Source of the DNA: Hydrogenophaga taeniospiralis CCUG 15921
GTDB taxonomy: Bacteria; Pseudomonadota; Gammaproteobacteria; Burkholderiales; Burkholderiaceae_C
Length of the DNA stretch: 64,000 nucleotides
Direction: 5' to 3'
NCBI RefSeq assembly: GCF_001592305.1
Contig: NZ_BCWR01000004.1
Location: forward strand, 434,001-498,000
In this document: positions 1 through 7,021 of the stretch, in pieces
How positions within the stretch are numbered: position 1 is the stretch's first letter
How the letters are laid out: each line of letters opens with the position of its first letter
Program-made: the position numbers and the translations under genes
Notes under the pieces: model-generated
Databases searched by the model: none
What the model saw: the letters and a program-made list of their open reading frames with translations, nothing else
What the model was told of the DNA's origin: nothing

Positions 1-750
1 GCGGACGACCACGCGGCCAAGTCGGTGGAGTTGGTCGTCAACCTGCGCAAGGACCAGACCTATGCCTGGCAGGCGCAGTACCACTTCGACCCCACCAGCG
101 ACTGGGAGGGCGAGCACTTCAGCTACGACGCCCCTCGCGTGGCGGCCAGCGAAGACCGCACCCTGGTGCTCAACCCGATGGAGTCGATCGGCTTCCTGCA
201 CCTGCGCGTCGAACCCGGTCGCCTCGACCCCGGCGTGATCGACTTCGCCGAGGTCGACATGGCCTACGAGGACCCGAGCGGCTGGAAACGCGAAAAGAGC
301 GGCCGCATCGTCGCCGCGACCCCCGCCGCGCTGGAATGGAAACTGCGGATCTCGCCGACCTCCCCACGCAGCTGGCGCTACCAGGTGCGCCACCACCTCA
401 AGAACGGCAGCGTGGTCGAACAGCCCCCGGTCACCACGCGCGCCACCTCGGTGGTCGTGGACGACCCCTACCCGGGCTCGCTGGACCTGACCATCTTCCC
501 GATCGTCGACTTCAGCACGGTGCGCGCCGCGATGCTGGACGTGAACTACGCCGATCCGGCCCACCGATACACCCGCCACGAGCGCGTGCGCCTGACGCCC
601 GAGATGACCGAGGCGCGGGTGCGCTTCTCCACCCCCGACCCGACCAAGAAGCGCTTCAGCCACCAGCTCACCGTGGTCCACACCGACGGGCGCACCGAGC
701 GCCCGGCACCGGTAGAGACCGAAGACGACGTGATCACCGTGGTGATCTGA
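1..750 (+). CDS. 3' end of large beta-rich protein, paralogous to the C-terminus of the 970-aa protein downstream (partial)
   Basis: The reading frame is open from the first base, so the gene begins upstream of the window; the GTG at 25 is only an internal codon. About 249 residues are visible. They align by eye with the last ~270 residues of the gene at 1739-4651: both share FHFDP or YHFDP followed by W, a DRTL-V/F-NP segment, a LKDGSV or LKNGSV segment, a VVxD/VHD segment, and a DPAxxY(E/T)R segment close to the C-terminus. The repeated alternation of short hydrophobic and charged stretches suggests a beta-sandwich module duplicated within the domain. No family is recognised. It lies 36 bp upstream of the caspase gene on the same strand and is probably co-transcribed with it. 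The N-terminal architecture cannot be seen here. Function unknown. Confidence 0.75.
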   Translation, partial: ADDHAAKSVELVVNLRKDQTYAWQAQYHFDPTSDWEGEHFSYDAPRVAASEDRTLVLNPMESIGFLHLRVEPGRLDPGVIDFAEVDMAYEDPSGWKREKSGRIVAATPAALEWKLRISPTSPRSWRYQVRHHLKNGSVVEQPPVTTRATSVVVDDPYPGSLDLTIFPIVDFSTVRAAMLDVNYADPAHRYTRHERVRLTPEMTEARVRFSTPDPTKKRFSHQLTVVHTDGRTERPAPVETEDDVITVVI

Positions 751-786
751 GACCGCACCCCACCCTTTCGCACCCAGGAGATTGCC

Positions 787-1692
787 ATGACCACCAAACG
801 AGCCGTCGTTGTCGGCGTGAACGACTATTCCGTGCAGGGCTACAACAGCCTGCGTTTCTGTGTGGCCGACGCGGCCGCGATGTACCACATGCTGGTCGAC
901 GCCTTCGACTTCGCGCCGCAGGACATCTTCTACCTGACCGACGGCGCCGCCACCTCGACCCGCATCCGCCAGGCGCTGCGCTATTGCGCGACCCAGTCGC
1001 AGCCGGGCGACGTGATCTGCTTCTACTACTCGGGGCACGGCGGGCGGACCCCGCACCCGGTGGTGCCAACCCAGATGTTCGAGACCATCATCCCGTTCTC
1101 GGGGCAGCACATCAGCGACCACGAGATCTACGCGCTCGCCGATACGCTGGAACCCTCGGTCGCCAACTTCACCATCATCCTGGACAGCTGCCACTCGGGC
1201 GGCATGCACGACGAGAGCGAGATCGCGCGCCGCGCGCGCTCGCCGCAGTTCAGCGCCGACCTGCTGCAGCGCCTGGGCCAGTGCCGGACCCTGCTGCCCT
1301 GCGGCATCTGCCTGCCGCCGGCCAGCCGCTCGGTGCTGGACAACAACATCCGCAGCGTGACCACCCGCAACACCGGCGTGGTGGTGGAGGAAGACAACAC
1401 GCGCCGCCTGGTGCAGCAGGCCAAGTCCACGCTGATCGCCGCCAGCTCGGCCGCCCAGGTCGCGATGGAGACCGAAGCCATCGGCCACGGTCTGCTGACC
1501 AAGTCGTTCCTCGACCTGGTCAACGCCAGCAATTTCAGCATCGATCACCATGGCCTGATCGATTCGCTCACCACCTCGGTGGCCGCCCTGATGACGCAGC
1601 ACTTCCCGGGTCAGCAGCAGACGCCGCAGCTGCGCGGCCAGGCCAACCGCATGGAAGAGACCTTCCTGGACGGCTGGCGCGATTCGCGCTGA
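787..1692 (+). CDS. caspase-like cysteine protease (peptidase C14 / metacaspase-type)
   Basis: A 301-residue protein with the hallmarks of a C14 caspase domain. The N-terminus reads KRAVVVGVNDY followed by a DAAAM helix, as in prokaryotic caspase homologues. The catalytic histidine is H84 in YYSGHGG and the catalytic cysteine is C135 in LDSCHSGG. The domain fills nearly the whole protein and no transmembrane segment or signal peptide is evident, so it is probably cytoplasmic. An AGGAG ribosome site ends 6 bp before the ATG. It lies 36 bp after the upstream partial gene and 46 bp before the OmpA-domain gene, in a same-strand unit. Prokaryotic caspase homologues often act as activated effector proteases in defence or programmed cell death, or as processing enzymes. 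Which applies here is unknown; the neighbours are not a recognised defence set. Confidence 0.88.
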   Translation: MTTKRAVVVGVNDYSVQGYNSLRFCVADAAAMYHMLVDAFDFAPQDIFYLTDGAATSTRIRQALRYCATQSQPGDVICFYYSGHGGRTPHPVVPTQMFETIIPFSGQHISDHEIYALADTLEPSVANFTIILDSCHSGGMHDESEIARRARSPQFSADLLQRLGQCRTLLPCGICLPPASRSVLDNNIRSVTTRNTGVVVEEDNTRRLVQQAKSTLIAASSAAQVAMETEAIGHGLLTKSFLDLVNASNFSIDHHGLIDSLTTSVAALMTQHFPGQQQTPQLRGQANRMEETFLDGWRDSR

Positions 1693-1738
1693 TCCGTGCC
1701 TGCGTTGCCACCGACATCCCCACACCGAGGAGTTCCCC

Positions 1739-4651
1739 ATGCTCAGCCTCGAAAAACCGCTCACCGTGGACGGCATCACCGTCTACCGCGACCATGCCGA
1801 TGTGAATCAGTTCTGGTACCTGCCCGGACCGGTCGGCCTGGCGCGCCGCGTGGGCCCGGACAACCTCGCCGAATTCAGCTTCCTGAAATACAAGGCCGCG
1901 AGCGTGGACGTGGGCAAGACCGGTGGCGGTTTTCTCATGTTCAAGACCACGCTCAAGCTCACGCCGCAGATCGAGTCGCGCATCGTGGGCCGCATCAACG
2001 CCGAACCGGGCGTGACGCCTCCGGTGCGCCTGGCGGCTGCGCCATTTGAAGAGGGCACGGTGCAGTGCCTGGCGCTGAACCTGCAGGGTTCGGGCGGCAC
2101 CGCCGCGACCGCGCCACCCGAGGGAGCCTTCAACGCCGTCGAGCTGATCCTCGGCGCGTCGGTGCCGTCGATGGACAGCGAGAACGGCGCGGCGTTCAGC
2201 CTGTCGCTGTCCAAGGAAGGTGCGACCATCCTGGAGCAGGCCTTTGGCGACGGCATGGCGCCGATCGGCGTGATCTACAACATGAAGTACCTGGCGATGC
2301 GGCCGTCGATCGACGTCGAGATCACGGCCGACTTCGAGCGCATCTTCAACCACTTCAGCGCCAGCATCGAAGCCCAGTACCAGTTCGTGCGGGGCGGCAT
2401 CGATGCCGCGTTCGAGTCGCTGGTGCAGAGCGGCGCGATCCAGATCAAGGTGCTGAACTTCACCGACGAAGCCGACGAGCGCGAACAGGAGAAATGGGCG
2501 CTGGATTTCTTCAAGGACGATCTCCTGTCCAAGTGGTTCGAGCCCACCCTGACGCCGGGCCAGCTCGCCGCCCAACAGGCCACCAGCGACCCGTTGAGCG
2601 ATGTGATCTCCGTCGGGCGCGACCTGCTGCGTGACGCCAACAACACCAACACCAATCCGGCCACGGGCACGGGAACCGGCACCAACACCAACCCAGGCCA
2701 GGGCACCAGCGCCAGCGGGACGCAGCCCGCCACGCTCACCGTGGAGCAGCAAAGCCCGACGCCGCTGCCGGCGGGCCAGGGCGTCACGCACACGCCCGCG
2801 ACCAGCGGCCTGGCGGAGACCCTGAGCATCACGGGTACCGGCGCCACGGTGCGCGTGGACGGTCAGCCGGTCACACCCGATTCCGCCGGGCGCATCACCG
2901 TGACGGTGAACCCGGCGGCGCAGAAGACCATCGAGGTGGAGTGGCCCGCACAGACCACCGAGGAAACCTTCGGCCTGTTCTTCGACTTCGACAAGCCCGC
3001 CGAAGCCAACTGGCGGGTCAACCCGCCCTCGCCCGAGTACCGCGCCTACGTGGACAACAGCACCACCGACCCGCGGTTCCAGAACGCGTCGGGGACGCTG
3101 CGCATCGAAGGCGACGGCAACTGGAGCGGACCGGAGCGCGGTGCCGAACGGCTGCGCGCGTGGATACAGCGCCTGCCCGCCCCGCGCAACGTGCGCGTGG
3201 AAGCCTACGCCAGCCATGAACACGCGGCCGGCGTCCCCGAGGCCCAGCGGGAGGCCTACAACCTGCGTCTGTCCACCCGGCGCCGCGACGTGGCCCTGGC
3301 CATCGTGCAGCGCGCCGGCGGCACGGTCAGCGGCGGCACCGCCAACGGCGACCACCCCGCCTCCAGCCGCCCCGGCACCCACTCGCCGATGGGGGGCGAC
3401 CCCGACAACCGCGTGGCGCACATCATCGGCCGCAGCACCGGCACCACGCCCTCGCGCTGGCGCGGCGTGCTGCGACGGCCGGCGTCGACGGTGCCTCCCC
3501 CTCCCCCACCGCCGCCTCCTCCGCCACCCCCGCCACCTCCTCCGCCACCGCCCCCGCCGGCCCAGGGCGGCAGCTCGCTGCCGGTGGTGGCGAGCTTCAA
3601 GCTGAAGTTCGTGCGCCAGGAGGAGCGCAAGAAGCTCACCCTGCGCTACAACCGCGCCGAAGCGACACGCCGCACCTATGCGCCACAGGGCTTCTTCGGC
3701 CTCATGCTGGGCGACCTGCGCGACAAGTCCCGCTACTTCAAGGAGATCGATCTCGACGATCCGTTCTTCCGGGAGTTCAAGGTCGAGGCCAGCATGCCGA
3801 TCGACTTCGCGCCCATCGGCCTGGCGTCGGCCCAGGTCGCACTGGACTACGGCGATCCGGCCAAACCCCAGGACCACAAACACGCCGACTTCGTGTTCCT
3901 GCCGGGTGACAACAAGGTCGAGACCTTCAAGGTGTTTCTCAACAGCACGCGCGACATCGACTACCAGGCCGGCTTCCAGTTCCACTTCGATCCGCAGTCG
4001 GGCTGGGCCGCCGACCGGCATTCCTACGACATACCGGCCCGGCCCACGCTGGACCGCACACTGTTCGTGAACCCCTACGAGCACATCGAGTTCCGCGAGA
4101 TCAGCGCGATCGCCGGCGACATCGACTGGGAGGTTGTCGAGTCCATGGAGCTCAACCTGAAGGCCCGCGGATACGCCAGCCCGGAACCCCGCACCGTGCT
4201 CACGCTGCGCCGCGACAGCGCACCACAGATCTGGCGCCTGCGCGGGGCCAAGCCGGCGCCCGCCGACCGTGGCGTCGAGATGGAGCTGGTGCAACGCCTC
4301 AAGGACGGTAGCGTCACGCGCCTGCCCGCCACCGATCTGACGGTGTCGCAGATCGTGGTGCACGACCTGTTCGTGGGTGCGCTGCGGATCGAGTTCATCC
4401 CGGCGGTCAATCCGGCCGTCGTGAACCGGGTGCTGGTCGACGTCGAGTACCGCGACCCGGCCAACCAGTACGAACGCATTGAACGGCTGGAAATCCCGGG
4501 CACCGCGACCGACTCCATCAAGCTGCGCATGGCCTTGCGCGACAAGAACCTGCGCCAGTACCGCTTCCGCCTGACCTTCATCGGTCCGAACCTGTTCCAG
4601 CAGCGGGCCTGGGTGGACACGGCAGAGGAAATCCAGCCGGTGAGCCTGTGA
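1739..4651 (+). CDS. 970-aa multidomain protein: unknown N-terminus, OmpA-like domain, poly-proline linker, beta-rich C-terminus
   Basis: The start is set by GAGGAG six bases before the ATG. Domains in order: residues 1-295, an unrecognised conserved-looking region containing FWYLPGPV and FSFLKY; residues ~300-345, a Thr/Asn/Gly-rich linker; residues ~345-400, a short beta segment; residues ~411-565, an OmpA-like domain with FFDFD, then VRVEAYASHEH, NLRLSTRRRDVA and a late N-RVAHI, matching the peptidoglycan-binding OmpA/MotB pattern; residues 586-607, twenty-two consecutive prolines; residues ~615-970, a beta-rich domain paralogous to the gene at 1-750. No N-terminal signal peptide is visible, which is odd for a peptidoglycan-binding module and suggests either a non-Sec export route or a cytoplasmic role. 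It follows the caspase gene by 46 bp and precedes the next gene by 9 bp. A substrate or partner of the caspase is an inference only. Confidence 0.7.
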   Translation: MLSLEKPLTVDGITVYRDHADVNQFWYLPGPVGLARRVGPDNLAEFSFLKYKAASVDVGKTGGGFLMFKTTLKLTPQIESRIVGRINAEPGVTPPVRLAAAPFEEGTVQCLALNLQGSGGTAATAPPEGAFNAVELILGASVPSMDSENGAAFSLSLSKEGATILEQAFGDGMAPIGVIYNMKYLAMRPSIDVEITADFERIFNHFSASIEAQYQFVRGGIDAAFESLVQSGAIQIKVLNFTDEADEREQEKWALDFFKDDLLSKWFEPTLTPGQLAAQQATSDPLSDVISVGRDLLRDANNTNTNPATGTGTGTNTNPGQGTSASGTQPATLTVEQQSPTPLPAGQGVTHTPATSGLAETLSITGTGATVRVDGQPVTPDSAGRITVTVNPAAQKTIEVEWPAQTTEETFGLFFDFDKPAEANWRVNPPSPEYRAYVDNSTTDPRFQNASGTLRIEGDGNWSGPERGAERLRAWIQRLPAPRNVRVEAYASHEHAAGVPEAQREAYNLRLSTRRRDVALAIVQRAGGTVSGGTANGDHPASSRPGTHSPMGGDPDNRVAHIIGRSTGTTPSRWRGVLRRPASTVPPPPPPPPPPPPPPPPPPPPPPAQGGSSLPVVASFKLKFVRQEERKKLTLRYNRAEATRRTYAPQGFFGLMLGDLRDKSRYFKEIDLDDPFFREFKVEASMPIDFAPIGLASAQVALDYGDPAKPQDHKHADFVFLPGDNKVETFKVFLNSTRDIDYQAGFQFHFDPQSGWAADRHSYDIPARPTLDRTLFVNPYEHIEFREISAIAGDIDWEVVESMELNLKARGYASPEPRTVLTLRRDSAPQIWRLRGAKPAPADRGVEMELVQRLKDGSVTRLPATDLTVSQIVVHDLFVGALRIEFIPAVNPAVVNRVLVDVEYRDPANQYERIERLEIPGTATDSIKLRMALRDKNLRQYRFRLTFIGPNLFQQRAWVDTAEEIQPVSL
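3494..3559 (+). repeat. poly-proline tract (22 codons) inside the 970-aa gene
   Basis: Twenty-two successive CCN codons encode residues 586-607. The third positions are mixed (CCT, CCC, CCA, CCG), so this is not a pure trinucleotide microsatellite and the proline run looks maintained at protein level as a rigid linker. Translation of such a tract would normally depend on EF-P. Confidence 0.9.
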
Positions 4652-4660
4652 GGCGGTGAC

Positions 4661-5620
4661 ATGATCCAGGCTGAGGCGACCGCCACAAGACCCGCCGAGC
4701 GCTCTCCCGCGATCCCAGCCGCGGTGGAGGCCACGCTGGACCGCCTGGCACCGTGGCTGCCCGGGGCCGTTGCGGCCGCCCGCGTGGCACTGGTGTCGCA
4801 GCTGGGCCCGGTCGGCCGCTCGGTCTGGCCGGAGGTGGCGTGGCGCTTCAGCCGGCTCACCAACACCGGCTTGCCGATCGAGTTCGCCTGGTCTTCACGC
4901 GAGACGGCGCTGCGTTACACGGTGGAGGTGGCGCCGCCCGAGGCCCCCGACCCGGAGCGCCTGCACCTGGCCGCCCGGCAACTCGACTGGCCGCACGACC
5001 CGCAGCCCGCGCTCGCGCCCTGGCAGGCACTGCAGCAGGACCAGACCCTGCGCTTTGGCGCCTGGCTGGGGGTGCGTTTTTCGTCCGCCGATCGGGCCAC
5101 CAAGCTGTACATCGACGTGCCGCCCGGTGCGGCCTTGCCCTCGGCGCTGGTCGCTGCGCACCCCTGGCTGCGCAGCCCCAGCCTGCACTGGCGCATGGCC
5201 GGCCTGAACGCCGACCGGAGCCTGGAGCTGTACGCGCAGAGCGCCGACCTCGACCGGCACCGGCTGCTGGATCTTTGCCAGGGGTTCTTTGGAACGCCCG
5301 CACCCGGCACCGCCTTGTCCCGGCACCTGGATCTGCTCTGCGGCGGACAGGACCTGCCGCGGCCTTCCGGCCTGAGCGTGGTCTTCGACGGCGACCTGCG
5401 GCCCCGCGCCCTGACCTGGTTCTGTTTCGCCAAGGCGGTGTTCCGCGACGACGAACAGGTCCGCCAGACCCTGCTCTGCGCCGTGAGCGGTGCGCCTGCC
5501 GAGATCTATGCTGCCCTCAGCGCTGCCCCCCCCGATGGCCGCTGGCGGCACGGCATGGTGGGCGCTGGCGTCGACGCCAGTGCATCCCACTGGCTGCAGT
5601 GCGGCCTGCGTCCCACATGA
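4661..5620 (+). CDS. possible ABBA-fold (DMATS-like) prenyltransferase
   Basis: A 319-residue protein with no signal peptide. The layout resembles bacterial and fungal indole/aromatic prenyltransferases of the ABBA (alpha-beta-beta-alpha) barrel type. An early GLPIEF-W segment (70-77) is followed by LRYTVE, a K-x-Y element TKLYI (K148, Y150), a second strand ending in ELYAQ (Y191), a third strand pair GLSVVFDG then LTWFCF (~235-256), and a final HGMVGAGVD strand (297 onward). In known DMATS enzymes the K-x-Y pairs and shielding tyrosines bind the prenyl diphosphate. Only one clear K-x-Y is present here, so the assignment is tentative. It starts 9 bp after the 970-aa gene and ends with an ATGA overlap into the next gene, indicating translational coupling. 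Alternative: an unrelated beta-rich protein of unknown function. Confidence 0.4.
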   Translation: MIQAEATATRPAERSPAIPAAVEATLDRLAPWLPGAVAAARVALVSQLGPVGRSVWPEVAWRFSRLTNTGLPIEFAWSSRETALRYTVEVAPPEAPDPERLHLAARQLDWPHDPQPALAPWQALQQDQTLRFGAWLGVRFSSADRATKLYIDVPPGAALPSALVAAHPWLRSPSLHWRMAGLNADRSLELYAQSADLDRHRLLDLCQGFFGTPAPGTALSRHLDLLCGGQDLPRPSGLSVVFDGDLRPRALTWFCFAKAVFRDDEQVRQTLLCAVSGAPAEIYAALSAAPPDGRWRHGMVGAGVDASASHWLQCGLRPT

Positions 5621-6426
5621 CAGCGGACCCCGCACCGATGCCTGGCCTGATCGCCAGCGAGATGCACGCCCGCGCACAGCGGCAGCCCGACTGCAACGGC
5701 TTCGCCACCGCCCTGGCGGTGCGCTCCCTGCGCCAGCAGGGCCACACAGCGCCACCCTCCCTGCTGGCCGTGCTCGAACGCTGCCGCTCGGCGCAGGGCG
5801 GTTTCGGGTTCTGGCCGCAGGGCCTGCGCCCGCATTGGGCGCCACCGCTGCCGGACGACGCCGACGACACCGCCATCATGGCGCTGGAGCTGTATCTGGC
5901 CGGGCGTCTGACCCGGACCGAGACACGGCGCATCGCCTGTCAGCGCGTCGGCACGCGGCGCATCGCCCGTCTGCCCGTCCTGCGCCCGCCGTGGCTGCGC
6001 ACGGGCGTGTTCGCGACCTGGAGCCGTTCGGCCGGGGGACAGGACATGGTCGACTGCACCGTGATCACCAATGTGCTGGCGCTGCTGACCGCGACCGGGC
6101 TGGAGGGCATCCCGGGCGCGCGTGAGTCGATGGACCTGCTGAACCGCGCCCTGGACTGGGCGGGTGATGACGAAACCCGCGCGAGCAGCCTGTCGCCCTT
6201 CTACCCCGACGCCGCCGAATGGCTGCTGGCGCTGGACCACGCAGCGGCCATGGGCTGCCAGGGTGTGTCCATCCTGCTGGACCGCGTGCGGCGCACGCCC
6301 TGGGGGCAGGCCGCATGGCTGCGCCGCGCGGCGCCCGACCACCCGATCTGCTCCAGTCCCTACGGACTGGCGGTGTGGCGCTCGCCGGCACTCTGCGCCG
6401 TCAGAAGTGGCGCCGAAGCCGCCTGA
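5617..6426 (+). CDS. terpenoid-cyclase/prenyltransferase-like alpha-toroid protein with DxDDTA motif
   Basis: A 269-residue protein whose ATG overlaps the preceding stop as ATGA; an alternative ATG lies at 5638. It resembles the squalene-cyclase/prenyltransferase alpha/alpha-barrel repeat family. GGFGFWP (61-67) looks like a QW-type repeat element. DDADDTA (80-86) contains the D-x-D-D-T-A sequence that carries the catalytic acid in class II terpene cyclases. It is followed by a D-C-T-V-x-x-N-x-L helix and an FYPDAAEWLLAL helix typical of these toroids. The protein is much shorter than a full two-domain class II cyclase (about 500 residues), so it may be a single-barrel enzyme or a binding protein. 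Its coupling to the possible ABBA prenyltransferase suggests that the pair handles an isoprenoid substrate, which is inference. Confidence 0.55.
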   Translation: MTADPAPMPGLIASEMHARAQRQPDCNGFATALAVRSLRQQGHTAPPSLLAVLERCRSAQGGFGFWPQGLRPHWAPPLPDDADDTAIMALELYLAGRLTRTETRRIACQRVGTRRIARLPVLRPPWLRTGVFATWSRSAGGQDMVDCTVITNVLALLTATGLEGIPGARESMDLLNRALDWAGDDETRASSLSPFYPDAAEWLLALDHAAAMGCQGVSILLDRVRRTPWGQAAWLRRAAPDHPICSSPYGLAVWRSPALCAVRSGAEAA

Positions 6427-6437
6427 ACACAGAGATC

Positions 6438-6520: not shown

Positions 6521-7021
6521 TCAGAACGGGATGTCGTCGTCCATGTCGTCGAAACCGCTGGCCGGGCGGGCCGCAGCAGGCGCCGGTGCCGGACGGGCCG
6601 CGGGCGGAGCCTGGCGCGGAGCCGGGGCCGGGCGCGAATAGCCGCCACCACCGCCGCCGCCTTCGTCACCCCCGCCCATGCCTTCGCGGCCGCCGAGCAG
6701 CTGCAGTTCGGTGGCGATGATGTCCACGGTGTTCTTTTCCACGCCGGTGGTCTTGTCCACGTAGGTACCGTATTTCAGGCGGCCTTCGACGTAGATCGGG
6801 CGGCCTTTCTTCACGTACTCGCCGGCGATCTCGGCCAGGCGGTCGTAGAAGGTGACGCGGTGCCATTGGGTGTCTTCAATGGTTTCGCCGCTGTTCTTGT
6901 CTTTGCGACGGCTGGAGGTGGCCACGCTCACGTTGGCGACGGCCTGGCCCGAGGGCAGGTAGCGGATTTCGGGGTCGCGGCCGCAGTTGCCGACGAGGAT
7001 GACTTTGTTGACGGATGCCAT
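6521..7021 (-). CDS. ssb: single-stranded DNA-binding protein
   Basis: A 166-residue SSB that binds and protects single-stranded DNA in replication, recombination and repair. The OB-fold begins at MASVNKVILVGNCGRDPE and contains WHRVTFYDRLAE and YVEGRLKYGTY. It is followed by a Gly- and Ala/Pro-rich disordered linker and the acidic tip DDMDDDIPF, which recruits partner proteins. The start is set at the MASVNK ATG at 7019-7021; a longer open frame upstream does not match the family. A convincing terminator follows. It is divergent from the ClC gene across 124 bp, and no clear LexA box was seen. Confidence 0.97.
   Translation of the reverse strand: MASVNKVILVGNCGRDPEIRYLPSGQAVANVSVATSSRRKDKNSGETIEDTQWHRVTFYDRLAEIAGEYVKKGRPIYVEGRLKYGTYVDKTTGVEKNTVDIIATELQLLGGREGMGGGDEGGGGGGGYSRPAPAPRQAPPAARPAPAPAAARPASGFDDMDDDIPF

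What the first reader, a model, noticed from the sequence alone, without database searches (positions are those of the whole stretch)
1..6426. Compact caspase-centred operon of unknown function
Five same-strand genes with gaps of 36, 46 and 9 bp and one ATGA overlap combine a caspase-like protease with intact H84/C135, two large beta-rich proteins (one with an OmpA-like domain), a possible ABBA prenyltransferase and a DxDDTA-bearing alpha-toroid protein. I know of no described defence, cell-death or natural-product system with this set. Possible readings: a protease-activated surface or cell-death system in which the beta-rich proteins are sensors or substrates, or a small isoprenoid-modification pathway with a protease processing step. 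The gene content is seen directly; the shared function is inference.
Basis: partly seen in the sequence, partly recalled or inferred. Interest (0 to 1): 0.78.

Follow-up and report, generated by a model that had tools for sequence, protein, structure and literature searches.

The report
Prenyltransferase–terpene cyclase gene island with caspase
The five genes are the tail of a ten-gene, horizontally acquired set in which two enzymes that probably attach an isoprenoid chain to an aromatic group and fold it into rings travel with an array of unknown modular proteins, while the caspase looks like an interchangeable extra rather than the centre.

The parts
1..750 (+). C-terminal third of module protein C3 (747 aa; whole gene at G000:C4:432507-434750, mostly before the window)
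   Evidence: N-module HMM E 9.3e-103, C3 being one of the HMM's own rows
787..1692 (+). Caspase-like (C14) protease, 301 aa, H84/C135 dyad, no second domain detected by Pfam
   Evidence: PF00656 1.9e-23; metacaspase-4 1.2e-18; dyad; no match in 15 other loci files
1739..4651 (+). Module protein C4, 970 aa: N-module 1-264, low-complexity and polyproline linkers, C-terminal region paralogous to that of C3
   Evidence: no family above cut-off in Pfam, NCBIfam or PADLOC
4661..5620 (+). ABBA (DMATS-type) aromatic prenyltransferase, 319 aa; E74, R85, K148, Y150, Y191
5617..6426 (+). Stand-alone class II terpene-cyclase beta domain, 269 aa; DADDTA at 81-86
6437..6437 (.). Approximate right edge of the ~18.2 kb insertion (left edge near G000:C4:422283); SSB gene follows at 6524-7021 on the - strand
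   Evidence: empty site in G025, operon also missing there in G005

Best explanation
The locus is the end of a mobile ten-gene operon (A, B, S, C1, C2, C3, caspase, C4, ABBA, cyclase). Shown: the gene content, the folds of the last two products on predicted models, conservation of their catalytic-type residues, their recurrence side by side next to module proteins in other phyla, and insertion into a chromosomal site that is empty in a relative. Inferred: the ABBA enzyme attaches an isoprenoid diphosphate to an indole or other aromatic group; the cyclase then protonates the attached chain through D83 and folds it into rings. The most likely acceptor is a polypeptide, possibly one of the operon's own module proteins, since no separate precursor gene fits in the operon's gaps and the nearest characterised enzyme, NctPC, does this chemistry on tryptophan of a ribosomal peptide. 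The protease slot (caspase here, trypsin-like enzymes in two relatives) would mature or release the modified product; this last step is the least supported.
Against: No activity shown. The ABBA nature of the L015 second half is not established: 3.9 bits with a profile of nine full-length copies, exceeded by 2 of 200 shuffles, though first among the non-ABBA proteins of 147 compared; hhalign probability 8%; no PDB match. No conserved precursor tail: short module proteins W_S, L016_4, L017_4 and the unrelated short L015_6 have a Trp near the C-terminus, L020_S does not, and 19 of 44 proteins listed have one in the last 25 residues. Full-length copies L020 and L026 and the partial one in L027 have no cyclase nearby. 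The pair could act on a small molecule (tyrosinase in L015). Window-type and MstE-type cyclases are linked only by fold and position: profile comparison is weak, a joint alignment did not put their DxD motifs in the same columns, and window-type profiles find no significant solved structure.
Confidence: 0.46

Rival explanations
1. Small-molecule meroterpenoid pathway: ABBA prenylates a free aromatic compound (tryptophan, indole, phenol), the cyclase makes a polycyclic terpenoid; module proteins are carriers or a scaffold, and the caspase is regulatory or incidental.
For: Best fold matches include tryptophan prenyltransferases such as IptA and PriB; the cyclase resembles AsDMS and MstE, solved with small-molecule substrates; a tyrosinase gene follows the toroid gene in Paracoccus.
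Against: No other biosynthetic enzyme or transporter was recognised in the operon; at least five of ten genes encode module proteins, unusual for such a cluster.
Confidence: 0.27
2. Conflict (defence or antagonism) system: module proteins sense or assemble, an exchangeable effector disables a target (caspase, trypsin-EAD1, amidase, HBL-family protein), and the isoprenoid enzymes lipidate the assembly for membrane action.
For: Trypsin-EAD1, EAD1 and STAND-like ATPase genes precede the array in Paracoccus; NAL1-type protease and amidase genes follow it in G118; an HBL-family protein in Azospirillum; sporadic, mobile distribution.
Against: PADLOC recognises only the caspase among the ten products; Pfam shows no NTPase or EAD among them; no phage or viral-contig relatives found; EAD/STAND seen at one locus only.
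Confidence: 0.18
3. Chance neighbours: the caspase and the isoprenoid genes are unrelated cargo on an island.
For: Caspase unmatched in all 15 other loci files tested.
Against: Gaps of 1 to 46 bp or ATGA overlaps between all ten genes; module + ABBA + cyclase recur across phyla.
Confidence: 0.09

Closest known systems
NctPC, bifunctional ABBA prenyltransferase / MstE-like cyclase of a ribosomal-peptide pathway (review PMC13290415, passages and part 1 of the reference list seen; primary paper Hubrich et al. 2024 not held, only its title seen)
   Same: Same two activities by fold; possibly fused in Paracoccus L015 (not established); conserved Glu fits an indole acceptor.
   Different: Separate genes in the window; no recognised precursor peptide; a module-protein array and a caspase are not mentioned in the passages read. 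No sequence of NctPC was available to compare.
DMATS-type ABBA prenyltransferases (IptA, PriB, FgaPT2)
   Same: Fold over almost the full length; Glu/Arg pair aligns with FgaPT2, weakly.
   Different: About 11-16% identity; below the Pfam PF11991 and NCBIfam TIGR03429 cut-offs.
Class II terpene cyclase beta domains (AsDMS, MstE)
   Same: Toroid fold, DxD-type motif; in AsDMS D331 and D333 variants lost all activity (PMC12365925, passages).
   Different: AsDMS is fused to a HAD phosphatase; the window protein is shorter (269 aa) and stand-alone.
EACC1-caspase and other EAD conflict systems (Kaur 2020 PMC7159879; Kaur 2021 PMC8195603; passages)
   Same: C14 protease; EAD1, STAND-like ATPase and trypsin beside one relative array.
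   Different: NCBIfam EACC1-caspase score 55.4 vs cut-off 140; prenyl, terpene, isoprenoid and ABBA have 0 occurrences in the held main text of the 2020 paper, prenyl and terpene 0 in the 2021 paper.

Membership tests
ABBA/DMATS prenyltransferase | Ten-strand alpha-beta-beta-alpha barrel | tested here: met
   Five strand pairs separated by helices; Foldseek and VIA; predicted model, not solved
ABBA/DMATS prenyltransferase | Acceptor Glu and diphosphate-binding Arg/Lys/Tyr residues | tested here: inconclusive
   E74, R85 align with FgaPT2 only weakly (E 1.1); K148, Y150, Y191 conserved in 8 of 9 full-length copies but not mapped onto a solved enzyme; roles in FgaPT2 recalled
ABBA/DMATS prenyltransferase | Curated family score (PF11991, TIGR03429) | tested here: not met
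   13.2 vs 25 bits; 14.7 vs 163.85 bits; so a relative by fold, not a member of those sequence families
ABBA/DMATS prenyltransferase | Prenyl transfer activity | not testable with these tools
   needs enzyme assay
Class II terpene cyclase (beta domain) | Alpha-alpha toroid fold | tested here: met
Class II terpene cyclase (beta domain) | DxDD/DxDTT-type motif with central Asp | tested here: met
   D.DDT in 6 of 6 window-type and D.DST in 2 of 2 MstE-type copies; position in the cavity not measured, and the two types' motifs fell in different columns of one joint alignment
Class II terpene cyclase (beta domain) | Significant sequence match to a solved member | tested here: inconclusive
   Window-type profiles: pectate lyase E 0.6, SHC 0.53; L018 relative in the same place 7.8e-50 to MstE
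NctPC-type peptide prenylation/cyclisation | ABBA plus MstE-like cyclase acting on one substrate | tested here: inconclusive
   Adjacent genes in 7 of 9 full-length copies; one possible fusion, not established; no NctPC sequence held
NctPC-type peptide prenylation/cyclisation | Ribosomal precursor peptide with Trp core | tested here: inconclusive
   Gaps between the operon's genes are at most 46 bp; no consistent Trp tail; rest of the genome not searched
EACC1-caspase conflict system | EACC1 membrane protein encoded next to the caspase | tested here: inconclusive
   Highest 19-residue Kyte-Doolittle mean in the ten products is 1.6 and the caspase is below the NF047832 cut-off; an EACC1 profile itself was not run
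Caspase/metacaspase C14 | Catalytic His/Cys dyad in a C14 domain | tested here: met

The most novel reading that the evidence does not exclude
A previously undescribed bacterial system in which large modular proteins are themselves decorated with polycyclic terpenes by a soluble prenyltransferase-cyclase pair and then released or activated by an exchangeable protease, here a caspase, giving terpene-armed protein assemblies used against rivals or invaders.
Probability: 0.14. Interest if true: 0.88.

Novelty: new variant of a known kind. Interest (0 to 1): 0.62.

Why it matters
Polycyclic isoprenoids on ribosomal polypeptides are a recent find; NctPC is the one precedent met in the passages read. 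Here a prenyltransferase-cyclase pair of the same fold types recurs in three phyla beside a large, unclassified protein module family, with proteases in at least three of the loci. If the modules are the acceptor, such chemistry extends to big proteins and is tied to caspase or trypsin processing. The locus gives concrete genes, candidate catalytic residues and an empty-site control for a direct test.

Tried and rejected
OmpA-like domain in C4: Pfam and PDB searches of residues 401-570 gave nothing. Caspase as core: no tblastn match at E up to 1 in 15 loci files from 12 places, most limited to about 10 kb of flank; plasmid relatives of the caspase (12 records, all but Gemmatirosa cyanobacterial by genus name) were not examined for neighbours. 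Tor-ABBA fusion in L015: the toroid half is MstE-related through L018 (E 4.5e-10), but the ABBA half failed a shuffle control, so I lowered the main reading from 0.50 to 0.46, the novel case from 0.15 to 0.14, and raised the rivals slightly. Precursor-peptide tail idea: no consistent Trp tail. Nuclease reading by eye of the Calothrix/Hymenobacter 309/346 aa proteins: no Pfam match, so not claimed. Viral contigs: 32 and 48 pattern matches, none a relative; phages none for C4. Cyclase types by hhalign: weak. A weak tblastn match (E 0.003) of the Azospirillum cyclase in L027 lies on the strand opposite the gene there and was set aside. One search was a mistake: the DNA query lay inside C4, and its short hits are meaningless; it was replaced by protein searches of the flanking genes. 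Surveys can miss members: only 5-6 candidates per genome were scored, and the genome contigs patterns were narrow. VIA-align lists only chains that Foldseek ranked, so unlisted folds are not excluded. Partial plasmid hits of C4 in Paraburkholderia, Deinococcus and Indioceanicola were not followed; G393 (one 471 aa module-like protein, L038) was only annotated.
Full report
What is there. The five frames, their spacing and the ATGA overlap are as described. The window is G000:C4:434001-498000 of a 5.28 Mb genome in 53 contigs. Upstream DNA shows that the operon starts near C4:423184: A (776 aa), B (590), S (222), C1 (727), C2 (763), C3 (747), caspase (301), C4 (970), ABBA (319), cyclase (269), all on one strand with gaps from -4 to 46 bp. 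Window gene 1 is only the end of C3.

An island. In genus-mate G025 the neighbours (SSB beside a CLC-type channel gene, and DUF3422) are about 120 bp apart, in G005 about 710 bp; here 18.3 kb lies between them. BLAST of the G025 interval to this genome breaks near C4:422283 and 440437, the two matches overlapping by 16 bases of the G025 sequence, so about 18.2 kb was gained: one VanY-type gene plus the operon. The G005 interval matches only at its two ends and was not read further. Of 10 genus-mates searched, G007 and G027 also have the two flanks close (3.4 and 2.1 kb, not read); in the other six the flanks are apart, on different contigs, or one is not found. No exact direct repeat of 11 bp or more joins the stretches next to the two ends. 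P0004 was found in 1 of 60 relatives, the own genome.

Module proteins. C1-C4 share an N-terminal module of about 260 residues (HMM E 7.9e-71 to 9.3e-103; these four are rows of the HMM's own alignment); S, not in that alignment, scores 5e-10. C3 and C4 are also alike in their C-terminal regions (35% over 360 columns). No family above its cut-off in Pfam for any of A, B, S, C1-C4, in PADLOC, or in NCBIfam for C4 and the end of C3, the only ones scanned there; no solved structure by profile of the module. A is related to a protein next to ABBA in Methylobacterium (E 9.5e-9), itself related to one in the Paracoccus MAG; B is unassigned.

Relatives. ABBA relatives: 2 of 72,556 plasmid records; 5 loci from 22 pattern matches in genome contigs, one of them the same Calothrix plasmid; 4 of 398 genomes of the phylum, own included; 2 of 345 genomes of G373's family, both already known. 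This gives nine full-length copies: window, Azospirillum (L013), Calothrix (L012/L016), Hymenobacter (L017), Paracoccus MAG (L018), Flavobacterium (L019), Methylobacterium (L020), G373 (L025), G157 (L026). G118 (L027) has a partial match (E 2e-5; 25.3 bits, above all 400 shuffles). Paracoccus SMMA_5 (L015, found through C4) has a 698 aa protein whose first half is MstE-type; its second half looks ABBA-like in register but scores only 3.9 bits, below 2 of 200 shuffles. Module-type proteins adjoin in 8 of 9 full-length copies, all but L026, and in G118 and L015; L018 shows only the C-terminal region and an A-like protein. A cyclase adjoins in 7 of 9: not in L020 or L026, nor in G118. E74 is kept in 9 of 9; R85, K148, Y150 and Y191 in 8 of 9, all four being lost in L026. 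Other positions invariant in A5, such as R139 and S239, change in the two divergent proteins. Calothrix and Hymenobacter share a seven-gene set at 49-64% identity, which points to transfer between phyla. A module array without ABBA also occurs: Pararhizobium L014. The N-module was found in 3 of 398 phylum genomes, own included, one of them weakly.

The variable slot. Paracoccus SMMA_5 has trypsin-EAD1, an EAD1 protein, a STAND-like ATPase, PLD, tyrosinase and a second trypsin; G118 a NAL1-type protease and an amidase; Azospirillum an HBL-family protein; the window a caspase. The caspase matches none of 15 other loci files, from 12 places. Not every gene of every locus was scanned against Pfam, so proteases elsewhere may be undercounted.

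Mechanism. Shown on models and alignments: two proteins of isoprenoid-enzyme fold with conserved catalytic-type residues, linked by neighbourhood. Inferred: prenylation of an aromatic acceptor, then protonation-driven cyclisation. The review PMC13290415 (passages; part 1 of its reference list) says that NctPC transfers a C20 group to tryptophan and that its MstE-like domain then cyclises it. The Glu at position 74, weakly aligned with FgaPT2, fits an indole acceptor; that this Glu contacts the indole in FgaPT2 is recalled. Whether the acceptor is a module protein, a peptide encoded elsewhere or a small molecule is open.

Literature. Nine library searches listed no paper that by title or abstract start concerns this gene set; the library lacks most subscription papers, including the primary NctPC and MstE papers, so this is no proof that it is unpublished.

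Noticed in passing
L015:25707-27803: 698 aa protein: MstE-related toroid (DSDST) followed by a half that looks ABBA-like by eye but fails a shuffle control; a tyrosinase gene follows.
   Followed up: partly
L012/L016 (Calothrix plasmid3) and L017 (Hymenobacter): Seven-gene operon shared between a cyanobacterial plasmid and a Bacteroidota contig at 49-64% identity; two products (309-320 and 346-349 aa) have nuclease-like motifs by eye but no Pfam match.
   Followed up: partly
L013:6205-14009: Azospirillum plasmid: an HBL-family protein and a shorter relative of it upstream of module protein, ABBA and cyclase; IS elements and a Tn3 element flank the set.
   Followed up: partly
G000:C4:422321-422989 (-): VanY/M15-type D-Ala-D-Ala carboxypeptidase gene is part of the inserted stretch.
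   Followed up: no
L026:11241-12221 (-): Lone ABBA copy that has lost four of the five catalytic-type residues kept in the other full-length copies.
   Followed up: yes
L020:12564-13408: Two small tandem proteins (126 and 155 aa), alike by eye, after the A-like gene in Methylobacterium.
   Followed up: no
L041:8001-8552: Fragment of a module protein on conjugative Bradyrhizobium plasmid pNK6d among transposases.
   Followed up: no
window:3256-3639: Polyproline run in C4 giving a long frame with poly-Gly on the other strand.
   Followed up: no
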